From the NCBI GenBank assembly GCA_030619885.1, contig JAUXAN010000024.1, positions 1-37,404 on the forward strand: a stretch of DNA of 37,404 nt. The letters run 5' to 3'. Below are positions 1 through 8,009 of the stretch, piece by piece; positions within the stretch are counted from its first letter, which is position 1, and every line of letters begins with the position of its first letter. Position numbers and translations under genes: made by a program. The notes under the pieces were generated by a model that saw nothing but the letters and a program-made list of their open reading frames with translations, was not told where the DNA came from and did not search any database. This DNA comes from a bacterium. Its GTDB lineage: Bacteria > Hydrothermota > DG-26 > JAUXAN01.

Positions 1-1152
1 GATATGGTTGATAATCTCTTGCCATTCTTTACCTGCGTAGACTGGTAGAATTTCATCAAGATATTCCAAAACCTTATTTGGAGCAGTGAGGGTGATTTGT
101 TGCTTGCTTTTTGATGTGAGGATAATTGTCTTTGCATCTCCTTTCCTCACACCTTTTAAGTAGAAAGATTCAACTGCCTTTGGCTCATATTTAATTTCGC
201 TATGAGTGCGGAAGGTTCTTAAAGAAGAAGATGTCAATGATTTTACAATAGCCTCAATGTCTATATCGGGCAGTGGAGCATTTTCTGTTAAACGGGTCAA
301 GCGAGTTTTTGGAAAGAATTGATTAAATGTAGCGAGCCTTTTCTTGAACTCTATGATATTGTCAACAAGAGATACCAGTTTGTCGTGGATTTTTACCTCT
401 TTGGGGTTGGTGAAGTCAATGCGACGAATGGGGATTTGCTGTAATTTTTCACCCAAGAATTCATAACCAGAGCCTTTCAAAGTTAAACGGTTTATATACC
501 ATACATCTAACAAGTCCGAATTTAAGATACCAAGGATATATTTTCCATTCTCCAATACCTTGGGCTTCTTCTTGATCACATAATTCTCATCACTGGTATA
601 AAAATCACCCTCAGAATAGATAAATGGTCGTTTAAATCTATAATGAGGCGAAACTATTTTCACGTCTTCAAATAGCTCTTGTCCTCTAGGCCAATGTAAA
701 CTAAACCAAGGAATTTTTCCTTGTTTCGTTTCTCGTTTTGAACTCAATATGGCTTTAAATTTCACCAAGTGCTTGTAAATCACTTGGTAATCTTCAATCC
801 TTATATCCTTAGTTGTATAAATTAAAAACTTGTCTTCGCTCCAGGACGGTTTCTCTGGAACATAAGAACCGATGTCTACATTTTGATAAAAATATTTAAT
901 AAGTTTACATTCAGCCTTCGGTATGTTTAACTCTTCTAACTCCTTCTTTGTTAAAAGGAAAATACCATCACCGATTTTGATATTATGTTGCTGAATTGTA
1001 TCAGGATGGAGTAGTGAGTAATTTCTTGTAATAACTTTATCAGCACTCGATACTATGCCTTGTCTTACCATGCATAAATCTTCGAGTTTAGCAGAGGTTT
1101 TTTCCAATTTACTTAATATACTTTCTATGCCTTTTGTGCTCTTCAAAAATTT
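1..1152 (-). pseudogene. Target-recognition (TaqI-like C-terminal) domain of the type IIG enzyme, separated by an amber codon, partial
   Basis: Reading the minus strand on from the TAG at 1153-1155 in the same frame gives 384 uninterrupted codons to base 1. They include segments typical of the end of Eco57I/TaqI-like enzymes: LEDLCMVRQGIVSSADKV just after the stop, then LGILNSDLLDVWYINR and GYEFLGEKLQQIPIRRIDF. This domain contacts the specific DNA sequence. No good ribosome site is visible between the two parts, so independent translation is not evident. The 3' end lies outside the window. The alternative to a true nonsense mutation is a single-base sequencing or assembly error. Confidence 0.85.
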
Positions 1153-3474
1153 CTACGCCCCCTCAGTCAACTCACCCTGCCTTACTGGACTTTTAAATAA
1201 CTCAACATATTCATCTGAAAACTCTTTTTTATTTATATGGTTTTTCATATGGTTCAGGAGTTTTTGGAGTTTCTTTCTGACTGTTTGACCAGGAAAGGTG
1301 TCCTTTACCTTTACCACTTTGATTTGATTCTTTCCCCTCGCATTTGCATCGCTGCATCTTTCAAGAATAAAGACCATGTTGTGCTGTCCTGGAGCGCCCT
1401 CAAAGATTTTTATCTCACCAAAGTCAACCGTAGTTTTAATCTTTGCATTACCGAGAATAAATTTCCTTAGTTTTGTAGCACCATCTACAGTGGGCCAATA
1501 TGATGTAGTGATAAAGCCAAGTTTTCCACCCTCTTTTAATTTTGAAAGCCCAAGGATGATGAACCAGTATAGATAGTCCATATTTCCCTGAAAAAAAACC
1601 TTCCAGTATGGGTATTGCTGAATGGTTGAACGGAAAAGCTCTTTATGCCCTTTTTGGCCGATATACGGTGGATTTGCACAGACATAGTCAAACTCTTGGC
1701 AGATTTTAATGGAGTCATAGACCTGCCTTTTTTGTCCTTCAAGGATTACTATGTCGTGCTTTTTGTCTTGTTCATATACTTCGTCCATCTTTTTATACTT
1801 ATCCTCGTAAGGAAGACTTGTCTGTTGTTGGTTGTGCAGTTTTAAAGAGTCCTGATGGATGACAGAGAGTGCAAATTCGGGATGCCTGTAAAGATGCTTA
1901 TGGCTATCAAGTATCTTTTTTATAATAGGGGTAAGTTGTATGAGAAGGTTTATCTCTGTTATGTAATAGGCAAAGGGGCTTATATCAGAGCCATGGAGTC
2001 CATTGATAATACAGTTCTCTATCTCTGAGAGGTCTTTAAAATCCTTGTCATTATAATCAGCATCTTCCCTTATCCTCCTTGCAGCCTCTACTAAAAACCC
2101 GCCTGATCCTGTGCAGGGGTCAAAGATAAGCCTTGGGTTTCTAATACCATTTTCAAATCTAAAGAATGCTTCGTTATTATCAAATCCCACCAAATCCCAG
2201 ATGAATGATACGACCTCCCTCGGTGTATAATATTGTCCTTTGTTTTTCCTGTCTACTCTGTCAACATATTCCTCATAGATGGTGCCAAGGACATCGGCAT
2301 TAAGTTTTGAAAAGTTGAAATGGGAAAATTCGTAAAGAACATCCACGAGAACCGTATCAGACGGATGGTACCATGTATAGTTATTGTCCTTCTTAAAGAG
2401 CCAACTATATTTTTCACCCGCAAGGTTGAAGGCATATTTTAAGACCCTTTCAATTTCGCGATTAAGGTTCTCATACCACTTTTTAAACCCTCCATCATAA
2501 AGGCTTTCGTCTATAAAACCTATATCTTCCCAGAGCCTAACCAGAAGGATACGCGTCATTGTAAAATATGCAACCCTGTATAGGTATAGATCCACCGCCC
2601 TTTCGTCAAGGCTCCCTCGTTTTGCCTTCAATATCTCCTTTAATGTAGATGCTGAAATTTCTCGTTTTTGTTTCTTTGGTTCAATAGATTCGACAATGGC
2701 ATCTATCTCGCTAGCAATCCTCTCCTTTCGCTGGTTATCATAACCAAGAATGTTAATGATGTGTTCTTTTTGAGTACGAACATCATCATGCAGAATGACA
2801 ACAACCTCCCTGACCTTTTCAGTTAAATCGTCCAGAGATAAGGTCTCCATATCTGTCCAAGGCTTGGCTTCCGCAATGACTTCTATCTTCTTAATAAAAT
2901 CAAGTTCCCGATGAGAAAACTGTTTTATAAAGTTTAAAAAATGCCTTGTATTGGGCCGGAGATCAATGGTCCTAGGGTTGGATTTAAAGTCCCGATACAG
3001 CTTTTCTATGGAAAATGAAAGGTTTGGAATGGGTTCTGAAGAAATAGCATTAAAAACCTTTACTTCCCCGATGTTTAAAAGGATACCATACTGGGCACCT
3101 GTTTTTTGTAGGTAGCTCTGAAGTTGTGGATAGTGAATGGTTAAATCATCACAATCGCTACCCTTGGTCTCAAATATAAAGGGATGTAAGTTCAAATCTT
3201 TTGGGAGAAAATCAGGCCTCTCTCCAGAACCACTCGCCTTTTCCTTGGGTATGATTGTTGTGCCAAAAGAAAAGCCCATGATTTTAAAGACAAAGGATGG
3301 GAAAAAGACAGGGTCAACAAGCTTCATTTCGTCTTTGTAGTTACCTTTGATATATTCAAGGTAATTAGATGCCCTACCATTACTGTAGACTTGATAGTCT
3401 ATGCTGTCTAATATCTCCAAAAAAGTGTTTGTCAAATTTTTTGTTTGAATGGTTTTTTGTTTAGATGGTTTCAT
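1153..3474 (-). CDS. Type IIG restriction-modification enzyme, nuclease and methylase part (Eco57I-like)
   Basis: This is a 773-residue protein. A PD-(D/E)xK nuclease signature lies at the N-terminus (Pro87-Asp88, then Glu102-Thr-Lys104). A long helical linker follows, then an N6-adenine methylase core with the SAM motif DPCTGSGG at 452-459 and the catalytic NPPY at 601-604. In this family one polypeptide cuts and methylates DNA, and a C-terminal domain recognises the target. Here the frame stops at a TAG (1153-1155) just before that domain, and the same frame then stays open to the window edge (see 1-1152). The residues around the stop are as expected for the family, with Trp (TGG) the likely original codon. 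The ATG overlaps the end of an apparent methylase relic; only a weak AAGG ribosome site precedes it. Without its recognition domain the enzyme would probably be inactive unless the two parts associate or the stop is read through. Family assignment is strong; activity is doubtful. Confidence 0.9.
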   Translation of the reverse strand: MKPSKQKTIQTKNLTNTFLEILDSIDYQVYSNGRASNYLEYIKGNYKDEMKLVDPVFFPSFVFKIMGFSFGTTIIPKEKASGSGERPDFLPKDLNLHPFIFETKGSDCDDLTIHYPQLQSYLQKTGAQYGILLNIGEVKVFNAISSEPIPNLSFSIEKLYRDFKSNPRTIDLRPNTRHFLNFIKQFSHRELDFIKKIEVIAEAKPWTDMETLSLDDLTEKVREVVVILHDDVRTQKEHIINILGYDNQRKERIASEIDAIVESIEPKKQKREISASTLKEILKAKRGSLDERAVDLYLYRVAYFTMTRILLVRLWEDIGFIDESLYDGGFKKWYENLNREIERVLKYAFNLAGEKYSWLFKKDNNYTWYHPSDTVLVDVLYEFSHFNFSKLNADVLGTIYEEYVDRVDRKNKGQYYTPREVVSFIWDLVGFDNNEAFFRFENGIRNPRLIFDPCTGSGGFLVEAARRIREDADYNDKDFKDLSEIENCIINGLHGSDISPFAYYITEINLLIQLTPIIKKILDSHKHLYRHPEFALSVIHQDSLKLHNQQQTSLPYEDKYKKMDEVYEQDKKHDIVILEGQKRQVYDSIKICQEFDYVCANPPYIGQKGHKELFRSTIQQYPYWKVFFQGNMDYLYWFIILGLSKLKEGGKLGFITTSYWPTVDGATKLRKFILGNAKIKTTVDFGEIKIFEGAPGQHNMVFILERCSDANARGKNQIKVVKVKDTFPGQTVRKKLQKLLNHMKNHINKKEFSDEYVELFKSPVRQGELTEGA

Positions 3475-5095: not shown

Positions 5096-5332
5096 TCAAG
5101 TAAAATCTAAAAGGTTGCTGTTTTGTCTTCCGGGGACGGTAAGTTCTTGGGTATCATAATGCTTTGAGAATCGTCCCCATTGTTCGTTCTCTAAAAACCT
5201 ACATTCTTCTTTAAACATAGGTTTTAAGTCTGAACATATTTTTACTCCTTCATAACCACAAGCTTCACACTTCTTTTTTAAAAGAGGAACTCCGCAATTT
5301 TTACACCACCATAGGTTGTTCGAAGTTCCCAT
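5096..5332 (-). pseudogene. N-terminal zinc-ribbon fragment, PAPS-reductase-like protein
   Basis: The 78-codon frame starts with WWCKNCGVPLLKKKCEACGY, a four-cysteine zinc ribbon, followed by KICSDLKPMF. This arrangement is the N-terminus of a family of phosphoadenosine-phosphosulfate-reductase-like proteins that are several hundred residues long. Here the frame stops soon after the ribbon and the catalytic part is missing from the downstream sequence (4834-5095). The last third also overlaps a repeat-like stretch with inverted GGGGACGGT/ATCGTCCCC segments, so the gene was probably cut by a repeat. A complete small zinc-ribbon protein is the alternative. Confidence 0.5.
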
Positions 5333-5461
5333 TTGATTTTTCCTTATTGTTTTATTTTCTTTTTCTTTCTGAACATTTCATCTATATTCTCTTTTTTCAC
5401 CCTTCACTGTCCTCCAATTTTTGTGGCTAGAATCTCGCCTAACCGAGCAACTTTATATATA

Positions 5462-5540
5462 GTATGTTCATCCATTTCTTATAAAATCTGCCAAAACTAT
5501 ACAAAATAAAACAATAACCGTCAAGAGAAATTTTTGAAAA
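5462..5540. repeat. ~79-bp direct repeat, left copy flanking the three-gene cassette
   Basis: The sequence from GTATGTTCA through TCCATTTCTTATAAAATCTG to the end of TTTTTGAAAA recurs almost identically at 7899-8009 in the same orientation. The two copies differ by one substitution, small indels in A/T runs and a 33-base insertion in the right copy. Similarity continues weakly upstream around CTAAC. The copies bracket the plus-strand genes 5642-7772. Confidence 0.85.
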
Positions 5541-5555
5541 ATTTGCATTTTTTCC

Positions 5556-5584
5556 TTGACTTAAACTAAATTTCATTGCAAAAT
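5556..5584 (+). promoter_or_regulatory. Candidate sigma-70 promoter of the three-gene cassette
   Basis: TTGACT at 5556-5561, a 17-base spacer and CAAAAT at 5579-5584 sit 57 bases before the first start codon. The -10 box is only a moderate match. Confidence 0.45.
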
Positions 5585-5641
5585 AACAATCGATTGTGAA
5601 GAATAACAAGTTCTATTGATTTATAAGGTAGGAGGGATTGA

Positions 5642-6328
5642 ATGACTTTTGACGACTTGCGCTTAAATAAAGTAATTTTACAATTGAGATATGATGAGGG
5701 GCATTTATATTGGGATAGATGTGGAGCACTTCTTTTGGACATTCAGAAGGAATTTCCTGAGTGGAAATGGGAAAAAGGACAAGAAGTGGGCTTTCTCATA
5801 AACACAAAGAGAAGTATGGAGCTATTATTCAATTATAGCAATATCCGGTTCATTCAAAATGAAGTAGAAAATCTAAACCAGTTCAAAGAAGCAACAGGAA
5901 AAATTGCACCATTCATTGTTGAAAAACTTGAGATAAAGAAATTCAAGCGGGTAGGGAACAGATATCTGTATGTTTTGCCTTTGGAGAATCCTGAGCAGGG
6001 TAAACAGATTATCCAAAAAAGCCGATTTATCCAAATACCTGAGGGAAAACTGACCTTGTTCGGCGAAAAACCGGTCAAGACTGCTTTTTTTGTCTACATC
6101 GAAAACAAAAATTCCCATTATCGAATTGAGCTTGGATGCATAGAGAGAATTGAGGTACCCAAGAATATTAAGATTGATGAGCGGTTCAACCCTAAATATG
6201 GACTGCGTATTGATGTAGATATTGCTACCGTGAGCGAAGTCAATGTTTCGGGTTTTGATTGCAGTGATTTTATTCAATTAAACAAAAATTTTTTAGAAAA
6301 CAATTTAATTAAATTTATTCAAAAATAA
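5642..6328 (+). CDS. Cassette protein 1, TIGR04255-like (tentative)
   Basis: The product is a 228-residue soluble protein without signal peptide. The start is well supported by AGGAGG seven bases upstream. Its pattern is an N-terminal strand (KVILQLRYDEG), a helix, EVGFLINTKRSMELLFNYSNIRF as a strand pair, FKEATGKIAPFIVEKL as a helix, and a second beta-rich half ending in a low-complexity Asn/Phe tail. This vaguely recalls the sporadically distributed TIGR04255 family, whose function is unknown. I cannot confirm that from the sequence alone. It leads a tight cluster: the next gene begins 21 bases downstream behind its own AAAGGAGG. The three genes are bracketed by direct repeats, so they probably travel and work together. 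Confidence 0.75.
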   Translation: MTFDDLRLNKVILQLRYDEGHLYWDRCGALLLDIQKEFPEWKWEKGQEVGFLINTKRSMELLFNYSNIRFIQNEVENLNQFKEATGKIAPFIVEKLEIKKFKRVGNRYLYVLPLENPEQGKQIIQKSRFIQIPEGKLTLFGEKPVKTAFFVYIENKNSHYRIELGCIERIEVPKNIKIDERFNPKYGLRIDVDIATVSEVNVSGFDCSDFIQLNKNFLENNLIKFIQK

Positions 6329-6349
6329 GGGATAAAGGAGGTAATCCCT

Positions 6350-6976
6350 ATGAATAATACAGTTACCGAGACAGAAACCGATAGGAGGGGAAAAGGAAAC
6401 ATCAAGTATGTTTCTATGTTTGGGACGACGCCAATCGGCATAACGGGTGGTCTGCAAGAAGAGAAACTTATTCGTTCCTACATGCCCACAATGGAGATGG
6501 AAATTGATGAGGAATTTGCAGGCATCTATAGTTCTGTTCCTGTTACCGGTGAAATTGCAAGAGTGGTTGTTCCCATCAGTAAAAGAATCGCAGAAGCCAT
6601 TGAATCTGCAATCAATTTGCTCGATGGAGTGCTGGAAGTTTATAATGACGAGATTGAGCGGATAAATACATTTTCGCTCTTTGAGGAAAAGATTAAATCT
6701 CTATGGGAATTACGGGAGGAGGTAAACCAAAATTTTGTGGATGTTCTCGTTCTTCTGGAAGTAGTAGTTAAAAATTCACACTACCAGAATTATAAGAAAA
6801 ATCAGTATCAATCTATAAAGACGGTATTGGAGAGGATTAAGGGAATCCATATTACAGCTCATGAGGCAAAAGAATGCAGAAAATTACTGATGGATAACGG
6901 GATTGATTTCTTCGCCCCCATTAGAGACTGGGAGAATTATACAATTGAAGTAAAGAAAAGAGATGAAACCGAATAG
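6350..6976 (+). CDS. Cassette protein 2, unknown function
   Basis: This 208-residue protein matches no family I recognise. The first 30 residues are polar and glycine-rich, then a mostly helical region rich in Glu, Lys, Ile and Leu runs from about residue 60 to the end, with heptad-like stretches (AEAIESAINLLDGVLEVYNDEIERI) that may form a coiled coil. No membrane segment or catalytic motif is visible. AAAGGAGG precedes the start at good spacing. Its last 14 bases overlap the next gene, so the two are probably translated in a coupled way. An acidic helical protein just upstream of a PIN-like gene is the position an antitoxin or partner often takes; that is inference. Confidence 0.75.
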   Translation: MNNTVTETETDRRGKGNIKYVSMFGTTPIGITGGLQEEKLIRSYMPTMEMEIDEEFAGIYSSVPVTGEIARVVVPISKRIAEAIESAINLLDGVLEVYNDEIERINTFSLFEEKIKSLWELREEVNQNFVDVLVLLEVVVKNSHYQNYKKNQYQSIKTVLERIKGIHITAHEAKECRKLLMDNGIDFFAPIRDWENYTIEVKKRDETE

Positions 6977-7772
6977 CAGACTATTTTTAGAAACTACTGT
7001 GCAAATAGACTGGTTCTCTGCTGATCGGAAGAAAAAGGAGAAAATAGATAAAATAATCTCCCAGTTTAGCCAGATTTTAAGTTCTACTTATGTAAAAATG
7101 GAATTCAGAAGGCGATTTATTCAAGATTTAGTTTACCTTTATAATGAAGCACTTGTAGGTGCTGACAATTTTGCCGATGTGTTTTTAAGAATAGATAAGT
7201 TGCATTTTGAATATCATAAGAGAAAAATTAAAGGGATCATAGCAAGCTTCTTTAGATTTTTCTCGGATACAACAGAGGAAGAGATCCACGGACCTTTTGG
7301 GAAAGTAGTTTTGGAAAAGGCTATCCCATATTTTAAACAGGCTATAGAGTCTGCGTGGGAAGCATTTGACGATAAAATTGATATACTCCTCAATGAAACA
7401 GATTGTTATCATGCTAAAATTGGTCCCGTGTTGACAGGGGTAAAATTTGATAACAGGATGAGCAAATGTAGAAAAGCAGATATAAGATGTAAAATTGTGG
7501 ATTTTTTCGTTCAGAACAAAGAAGTCTTCCAAAAGATTTATGAAAGACTTTCGAGTATGGAAAAACTGGATGCTGAACAAGAGAAAATCAAGAACATCCT
7601 TGAGAAAGCATTAGAACATTCTCAAAATATGGCTGACCGGCAAAACTGCTGGAATTGTGGAGATGCAATAATCGCTTTGGAATCTCCTAATGATGCGGTT
7701 TTGTTTACGACCAATATGAAACATTTTGAACCCGTCTGTTCTGCAATAGAGAAGAAATGCTTAAAACCTTGA
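6963..7772 (+). CDS. Cassette protein 3, divergent PIN-like nuclease domain protein
   Basis: The 269-residue protein carries the ordered signature of PIN ribonucleases with a long insertion. It opens with a strand RLFLETTVQID (Glu10 where PIN proteins have Asp; Asp16 nearby). Next comes SSTYVKMEFRR with Glu47 at the usual second acidic position, then about 180 helical residues. Near the end is NCGDAIIALESPNDAVLFTT, with Asp234, Thr249-Thr250, Asn251 and Phe255, matching the typical GDAxIAA...T.N..F ending. PIN domains cut RNA and are common toxins, at about 130 residues; this one is twice that length. It starts inside the previous gene. No neighbour looks like a classical short antitoxin, so the role as toxin or defence effector is inferred. 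Confidence 0.65.
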   Translation: MKPNSRLFLETTVQIDWFSADRKKKEKIDKIISQFSQILSSTYVKMEFRRRFIQDLVYLYNEALVGADNFADVFLRIDKLHFEYHKRKIKGIIASFFRFFSDTTEEEIHGPFGKVVLEKAIPYFKQAIESAWEAFDDKIDILLNETDCYHAKIGPVLTGVKFDNRMSKCRKADIRCKIVDFFVQNKEVFQKIYERLSSMEKLDAEQEKIKNILEKALEHSQNMADRQNCWNCGDAIIALESPNDAVLFTTNMKHFEPVCSAIEKKCLKP

Positions 7773-7898
7773 GAATTTAAAAATTAATCAAACTGTCCTT
7801 AGTATCTCAAAATCAAGGAGTTATGCTTTTCTAATTTGATTAAGATTAGACTTGTCAATTACTTCCCAAACCACCACTGACTAACAAATTTATAAATG

Positions 7899-8009
7899 GT
7901 ATGTTCACCCCGTAAGAGACCAGAGGTCTTACGGGGTTCATCCATTTCTTATAAAATCTGCCAGAACTATACAAAAAAACAATAACCGTCAAGAGAAATT
8001 TTTTGAAAA
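7899..8009. repeat. ~79-bp direct repeat, right copy, with 33-base hairpin insertion
   Basis: Same sequence as 5462-5540, but split after GTATGTTCA by 33 extra bases (7908-7940). It lies between the end of the PIN-like gene and the 3' end of the minus-strand export operon. Confidence 0.85.
7904..7940. mobile_element. Miniature hairpin insertion with TTCA duplication
   Basis: A 29-base palindrome (7908-7936) has arms CCCCGTAAGA and TCTTACGGGG around a 9-base loop. TTCA stands on both sides (7904-7907 and 7937-7940), while the left repeat copy has a single TTCA. The comparison shows an insertion with an apparent 4-bp target duplication. It could act as a two-way terminator between the converging operons, although no T-run follows it. 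Confidence 0.55.

What the first reader, a model, noticed from the sequence alone, without database searches (positions are those of the whole stretch)
5462..8009. Three-gene cassette with a divergent PIN-like effector between direct repeats
Three tightly packed plus-strand genes share one candidate promoter, and two of them overlap by 14 bases. The third has a PIN-like order of residues (Glu10/Asp16, Glu47, Asp234, T-N) but twice the usual length; the first two have no family I can name with certainty. The unit sits exactly between two ~79-bp direct repeats next to restriction and nuclease genes. This is what one would expect of a mobile defence or toxin unit. The nuclease role and mobility are inferred.
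Basis: partly seen in the sequence, partly recalled or inferred. Interest (0 to 1): 0.7.

Follow-up and report, generated by a model that had tools for sequence, protein, structure and literature searches.

The report
Three-gene RNase cassette between promoter repeats
Three tightly packed bacterial genes, kept together in a related genome, look like an RNA-cutting toxin, its partner and a sensor-like protein, and sit between copies of a promoter repeat that frames other RNA-nuclease-like gene sets in the same genome; this points to a little-described swappable defence or toxin-antitoxin system.

Summary
The anatomy is confirmed: genes at 5642-6328, 6350-6976 and 6963-7772 (14-base overlap), between 74-bp direct repeats 95% identical. 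All three genes recur in the same order in another genome of the class (31/22/35% identity); genes 2 and 3 recur in a third genome. Gene 3 is probably a divergent PIN nuclease split by a ~120-residue insert: PIN-type acidic positions are conserved in all three homologues and weak PIN profile hits lie at both ends. The low-confidence fold did not confirm it. In this phylum, and on a Thermus plasmid, TIGR04255 genes repeatedly head three-gene operons ending in a HEPN or PIN gene, so the window cassette is a divergent case of a TIGR04255-partner-RNase arrangement not found in the papers or defence models searched. The repeats are not a private pair: six copies exist in the genome. Each carries an outward sigma-70-like promoter plus the start of a small ORF. 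In a second array they separate two further cassettes with HEPN-like genes; one copy stands without a cassette. Toxin, antitoxin, defence and mobility remain inferred.

The parts
5642..6328 (+). Gene 1: divergent TIGR04255-like protein (228 aa), predicted two-half TBP-like fold; proposed sensor or regulator
   Evidence: hhalign score 39 against 13 TIGR04255 proteins of the phylum versus at most 20 in 60 shuffles; model pLDDT 79, pTM 0.81; Foldseek top hits TBP, E 1e-4, TM only 0.3
6350..6976 (+). Gene 2: partner protein (208 aa), candidate antitoxin; no named family
   Evidence: homologues directly upstream of gene 3 homologues in G001 and G057; only weak unspecific Pfam hits
6963..7772 (+). 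Gene 3: probable PIN-type RNase (269 aa) split by a ~120-aa insert; residues E10 (D in relatives), E47, D234, N251
   Evidence: PF01850 at 8-52 (E 0.13) and PIN_12 at 185-238 (E 0.0036), both sub-threshold and collinear; invariant columns; core versus PIN profile score 21 against at most 14.3 in 30 shuffles
5466..5539 (-). Repeat R1, copy W1: outward (leftward) promoter TTGACG-17-TATAGT (5524-5496)
   Evidence: six copies in genome; promoter scan
5540..5640 (+). Region R2: cassette promoter TTGACT-17-CAAAAT (5556-5584) and leader, shared with cassettes A and B on contig C51
   Evidence: alignment and shuffle test
5404..5475 (-). Small ORF started by R1: MDEHTIYKVARLGEILATKIGGQ
   Evidence: related starts after the C54 and C51c copies
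7936..8008 (-). Repeat R1, copy W2, promoter reading leftward towards the 3' end of gene 3
7908..7936 (.). Hairpin CCCCGTAAGA-9-TCTTACGGGG inserted in the small ORF of copy W2, with the same five bases (TGAAC) on either side; same insert in copy C51b
7859..7945 (-). Small ORF of copy W2 with the hairpin read through: MDEPRKTSGLLRGEHTIYKFVSQWWFGK

Best explanation
The unit is a three-component RNase cassette: gene 3 is a PIN-type ribonuclease toxin or effector, gene 2 its cognate inhibitor or adaptor, and gene 1 a TIGR04255-type protein, probably the component that senses invasion or stress and controls the pair. It is a divergent case of a TIGR04255-partner-RNase operon in which the RNase is HEPN or PIN and the partner changes with it. 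In this genome such cassettes sit in arrays behind a common bidirectional promoter region (R1R2); cassettes are probably gained, lost or exchanged by recombination between the R1R2 copies. Shown: gene order, conservation, repeats, array syntax, a cassette-free copy. Inferred: nuclease activity, inhibition, sensing, defence role and the recombination step.
For: Unit conserved in G001, genes 2-3 in G057. Gene 1 matches TIGR04255 over nearly its whole length. Among the TIGR04255 loci of 14 genomes of the phylum, eight are TIGR04255-partner-HEPN and two TIGR04255-partner-PIN, genes overlapping or a few bases apart; same on a Thermus brockianus plasmid. Second array on contig C51: R1R2-[gene1', gene2', HEPN-like]-R1R2-[HEPN-like, second gene]-R1, the first of these again found as a unit in G027. 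Lone R1 on C54. PIN-type residues invariant.
Against: No PIN fold match for the gene 3 model, and PIN profiles stay below their cut-offs. Gene 1 fails the TIGR04255 cut-off by direct search. Gene 2 has no match to known antitoxins or to the partner genes of the HEPN operons. G057 has a different first gene. Position 10 is Glu here, so activity could be reduced. No defence library hit worth the name for any of the three. No recombinase was identified.
Confidence: 0.6

Rival explanations
1. An ordinary two-gene toxin-antitoxin pair (VapBC-like) in genes 2-3, with gene 1 an unrelated passenger that happens to be co-transcribed.
For: Genes 2-3 occur with a different first gene in G057; short overlaps between genes 2 and 3 are seen in all three genomes.
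Against: Gene 1 is kept in front of genes 2-3 in G001 at 31% identity, and its family heads RNase operons again and again. Gene 2 has no recognisable DNA-binding antitoxin domain.
Confidence: 0.2
2. An abortive-infection system in which all three proteins form one complex that is inactive until triggered, with no free antitoxin, as suggested for the PIN systems DS-3 and DS-5.
For: DS-3 has a PIN domain split between N and C terminus and no antitoxin; deleting the partner of DS-5 did not release toxicity (PMC13092281). Gene 3 has the same split layout.
Against: DS-3 is a one-gene system; no sequence of DS-3 was available for comparison. The HEPN and VapC-like relatives look like toxin-antitoxin pairs behind TIGR04255.
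Confidence: 0.25
3. The repeats are not recombination sites but remnants of a duplicated promoter-gene family (start MDEHTIYK); cassettes landed beside them by chance.
For: Every copy carries a promoter on the opposite strand followed by an ORF start; the repeat has only chance-level matches in G001 and G002.
Against: Three different cassettes begin right after R1R2 and are followed by another R1 in the same orientation; only six copies exist and five of them border such cassettes.
Confidence: 0.25

Closest known systems
TIGR04255 family operons (TIGR04255 + partner + HEPN or PIN gene)
   Same: Gene order, tight packing, first-gene homology by profile comparison, RNase-type last gene.
   Different: Gene 1 is too divergent for the family cut-off; partner and PIN protein belong to their own lineage; PIN has a large insert.
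VapBC toxin-antitoxin (PIN toxin)
   Same: Small partner gene directly upstream of, and overlapping, a PIN-like gene with the acidic set.
   Different: About twice the length of VapC, PIN split by an insert, no DNA-binding antitoxin domain found, third gene in front.
DefensePredictor DS-3 and DS-5 (PMC13092281)
   Same: PIN RNase whose domain is split between N and C terminus (DS-3); PIN plus partner both needed (DS-5).
   Different: One or two genes, other partners; sequence relation not tested.
Toxin-antitoxin-chaperone (TAC) modules, CmdTAC (PMC5105189, PMC6377645, PMC11618068)
   Same: A toxin-antitoxin pair plus a third controlling protein, in CmdTAC for phage defence.
   Different: Third protein there is a SecB-like chaperone; gene 1 shows a TBP-like predicted fold.
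Integron gene cassettes
   Same: Series of different gene cassettes separated by a common repeat.
   Different: No attC core motifs in any repeat copy, the repeat carries promoters, no integrase noticed among the window ORFs.

Membership tests
PIN-domain nuclease | Match to a PIN profile above its cut-off | tested here: not met
   Best PIN_12 E 0.0036, 18.2 bits against cut-off 32; PF01850 13.3 against 23.6
PIN-domain nuclease | Set of acidic catalytic residues in order D-E-D-(D/N) | tested here: met
   D/E10, E47, D234, N251 conserved in all three homologues; first position Glu in the window only
PIN-domain nuclease | PIN fold | tested here: inconclusive
   Low-confidence model, pLDDT 62, no PIN hit in PDB; strand-helix order at both ends compatible
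VapBC | Toxin of about 130-150 aa | tested here: not met
   269, 262 and 253 aa in the three homologues
VapBC | Antitoxin with DNA-binding domain (RHH, AbrB, HTH) | tested here: not met
   No such family for gene 2 in Pfam, NCBIfam, PHROGs or PADLOC
VapBC | Toxicity neutralised by the partner | not testable with these tools
   needs expression experiments
TIGR04255 | Score above the curated cut-off of the model | tested here: not met
   No match in the window's genome at E 0.001; none at E 1 for gene 1
TIGR04255 | Near full-length homology by profile comparison | tested here: met
   hhalign probability 27-81% and E 7e-4 to 1e-6 depending on alignment and settings; score well above 60 shuffles
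TIGR04255-partner-RNase operon | TIGR04255 gene first, partner second, HEPN or PIN gene last, tightly packed | tested here: met
   Window gaps 21 and -14; 8 HEPN and 2 PIN cases in phylum plus Thermus; PIN nature of gene 3 probable only
TAC module | SecB-like chaperone as third component | tested here: not met
   No SecB-like match for gene 1 among the listed structure hits or families
Integron cassette array | attC core sites (GTTRRRY / RYYYAAC) | tested here: not met
   Neither motif in any of six repeat copies

The most novel reading that the evidence does not exclude
TIGR04255 proteins are the constant, TBP-like nucleic-acid-sensing component of a widespread undescribed defence system into which different partner-RNase pairs (HEPN or PIN) are plugged, and in this lineage whole cassettes are exchanged by recombination at a shared bidirectional promoter repeat, giving a promoter-based defence cassette array.
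Probability: 0.3. Interest if true: 0.8.

Novelty: new variant of a known kind. Interest (0 to 1): 0.55.

Why it matters
It ties an orphan, patchily distributed protein family (TIGR04255, named in none of the 5.39 million open papers searched) to RNase effectors of two unrelated folds and gives it a testable role as the shared controller. It also suggests a simple way in which defence genes may be swapped: different cassettes behind the same promoter region, with recombination between the promoter copies.

Tried and rejected
Gene 2 as a HlyE-type pore former: Pfam and NCBIfam hits (E 4e-4 and 9e-5, below cut-offs, one helical stretch), not seen in the G001 homologue; rejected as helical chance similarity. 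Two scans of bacterial and archaeal genome contigs and one of viral contigs for gene 3 gave no confirmed relatives, but the automatic patterns were poorly placed, so this is weak negative evidence; distribution outside the phylum is therefore unknown. No match of genes 1-3 in plasmids and of gene 3 in phages. Weak hits L017-L019 to gene 3 and L071-L074 to gene 2: L017 and L019 were read and hold no relative of the cassette, the others are partial hits of low score and were not read. Integron attC idea rejected. First gene of cassette B as TIGR04255: alignment collinear but not above shuffle level, left open.

Full report
What is there. The window (contig C68 of its assembly, 2.46 Mb in 86 contigs) holds three plus-strand genes at 5642-6328, 6350-6976 and 6963-7772, the last two overlapping by 14 bases. 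A 74-bp direct repeat flanks them at 5466-5539 and 7936-8008, 71 of 75 aligned positions identical.

The unit is conserved. A search of all 147 held genomes of the phylum found gene 3 in three genomes. In G001 (same class) the three genes lie in the same order with 31, 22 and 35% identity and overlaps or small gaps. In G057 genes 2 and 3 lie together behind an unrelated first gene, between a riboflavin-synthase-like gene and an aminotransferase-like gene (the neighbours' names are my reading of the sequences). Profile searches found gene 1 only in G000 and G001, and gene 2 with full-length matches only in these three genomes. The cassette is thus rare, patchy and in different neighbourhoods, as expected of something that moves; movement itself was not observed.

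Gene 3. Pfam gives two sub-threshold PIN hits at the two ends of the protein, in the right order: PF01850 at residues 8-52 and PIN_12 at 185-238. The three homologues share D/E10, E47, D234 and N251; residue 10 is Asp in both relatives and Glu only in the window. Removing the insert (about residues 66-186) and comparing the rest with seven PIN proteins of the phylum gave a collinear alignment scoring 21.0 against at most 14.3 in 30 column shuffles, though with a low nominal probability, and no excess over shuffles when only the three PIN_12 proteins were used. The AlphaFold model from three sequences is poor (pLDDT 62) and matched nothing in the PDB, so the fold test is inconclusive. I hold the PIN assignment as probable, about 0.75.

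Gene 1. It fails the TIGR04255 model by direct search, but a profile of the window and G001 proteins aligns over nearly its whole length with 13 TIGR04255 proteins of the phylum. The score was 39.4 against at most 20.4 in 60 shuffles, and no other protein set of these loci scored above 20. With all 15 sequences AlphaFold gave a good model (pLDDT 79, pTM 0.81). Its order of elements is strand-helix-four strands-helix, then a similar second half, and the best PDB matches are TATA-binding proteins (E 1e-4, probability near 1, but TM-score only about 0.3). Viral matches include a TATA-binding-protein entry. I read this as a two-half TBP-like fold; whether it binds nucleic acid is unknown. TBP-like domains fused to RNase LS-family HEPN domains have been noted before (PMC3710099).

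The TIGR04255 context. TIGR04255 genes occur in 14 of the 147 genomes. Reading their loci, eight are followed by a partner gene and a HEPN-like gene (L020, L021, L022, L024, L026, L027, L028, L029) and two by a partner and a PIN gene (L033, L034); of those scanned, the L020 HEPN protein scores E 2e-7 to Pfam HEPN, the L033 and L034 proteins E 2e-7 and 2e-14 to Pfam PIN; the other HEPN assignments rest on alignment with L020. The rest are truncated by contig ends or have other downstream genes. The genes nearly always touch or overlap. A Thermus brockianus plasmid shows the same TIGR04255-partner-HEPN order near a cas6 gene and a VapC gene, although the HEPN gene is not annotated there. The partner genes of the HEPN and PIN operons show no detectable similarity to each other. 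The string TIGR04255 occurs in none of the 5.39 million papers searched, and PADLOC gave no hit for the TIGR04255 protein scanned. Subscription papers and preprints were not searchable, so absence from the literature is only indicated.

The repeats. Six copies exist in the genome: two here, three on contig C51, one on C54. Read on the opposite strand, each is a promoter region: TTGACG-17-TATAGT in copy W1, followed by the start of a small ORF, MDEHTIYK(V/L)AR.G in the best preserved copies. In three copies (W1, C51a, C51b) the similarity runs on for about 90 bp towards the cassette and includes a second, oppositely directed promoter in front of the first cassette gene; the local alignment scores are 82-160 against at most 43 in shuffles. 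I call the parts R1 and R2. The order on C51 is R1R2, three genes ending in a HEPN-like protein, R1R2, two genes of which one is HEPN-like, R1 with a trace of R2. The first of these cassettes recurs in the same order, with frame breaks, in G027. In the window the order is R1R2, the PIN cassette, R1. On C54 R1 stands without a cassette of this kind. Copies W2 and C51b share a 29-base hairpin insertion with TGAAC on both sides, and in both places the copy with the hairpin lies at the downstream end of a three-gene RNase cassette. R1 has only chance-level matches in G001 and G002. The simplest account is that R1R2 is a local promoter module behind which cassettes are exchanged by recombination; a chance arrangement of promoter duplicates is the main rival.

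How it most likely works. By analogy with toxin-antitoxin and defence RNases: gene 3 cuts RNA, gene 2 holds it in check or presents it, gene 1 detects the trigger. A PIN protein split between its ends and needed for phage defence (DS-3) and a PIN-partner pair (DS-5) were reported in 2026 (PMC13092281); three-component control is known from TAC modules (PMC5105189, PMC11618068). None of these steps was tested here for this cassette.

Verdict. Interest 0.55; new variant of a known kind.

Noticed in passing
window 1-1146 and 1153-3474, minus strand: A type IIG-like restriction-methylation enzyme appears split into two ORFs (773 aa and at least 382 aa) with a stop and frame change between them; it may be inactive or an assembly error.
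   Followed up: partly
window 5096-5332, minus strand: A 78-aa ORF with a zinc-ribbon-like start (WCKNCGVPLLKKKCEACGYEG), perhaps the remnant of a longer gene once driven by the repeat promoter; Pfam gives only a weak double-zinc-ribbon hit.
   Followed up: partly
L007 7226-7657 and 6691-7224, minus strand (contig C51): Second cassette between repeats: HEPN-like 143-aa protein (weak CARF-HEPN hit, E 0.004) and a 177-aa protein with a possible nuclease-like motif.
   Followed up: partly
L008 7031-7267 and 6651-7043; L007 5945-6175 and 5599-5973: Near the C54 and C51c repeats lie pairs of a DUF5678-like small protein and a retropepsin-like aspartyl protease, another compact two-gene unit.
   Followed up: partly
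window 7908-7936 and L007 7901-7929: Short hairpin with TGAAC on both sides in two repeat copies; looks like a small inserted element that keeps the ORF in frame.
   Followed up: partly
L008 215-6140, minus strand (contig C54): Gene series behind the cassette-free repeat: 111-aa ORF, 751-aa protein with two GHKL ATPase domains, two unknown proteins and an N6-methyltransferase-like protein; possible defence system.
   Followed up: no
L025 and L030: TIGR04255 followed by two small genes with neither HEPN nor PIN features that I could see: a third type of downstream pair.
   Followed up: no
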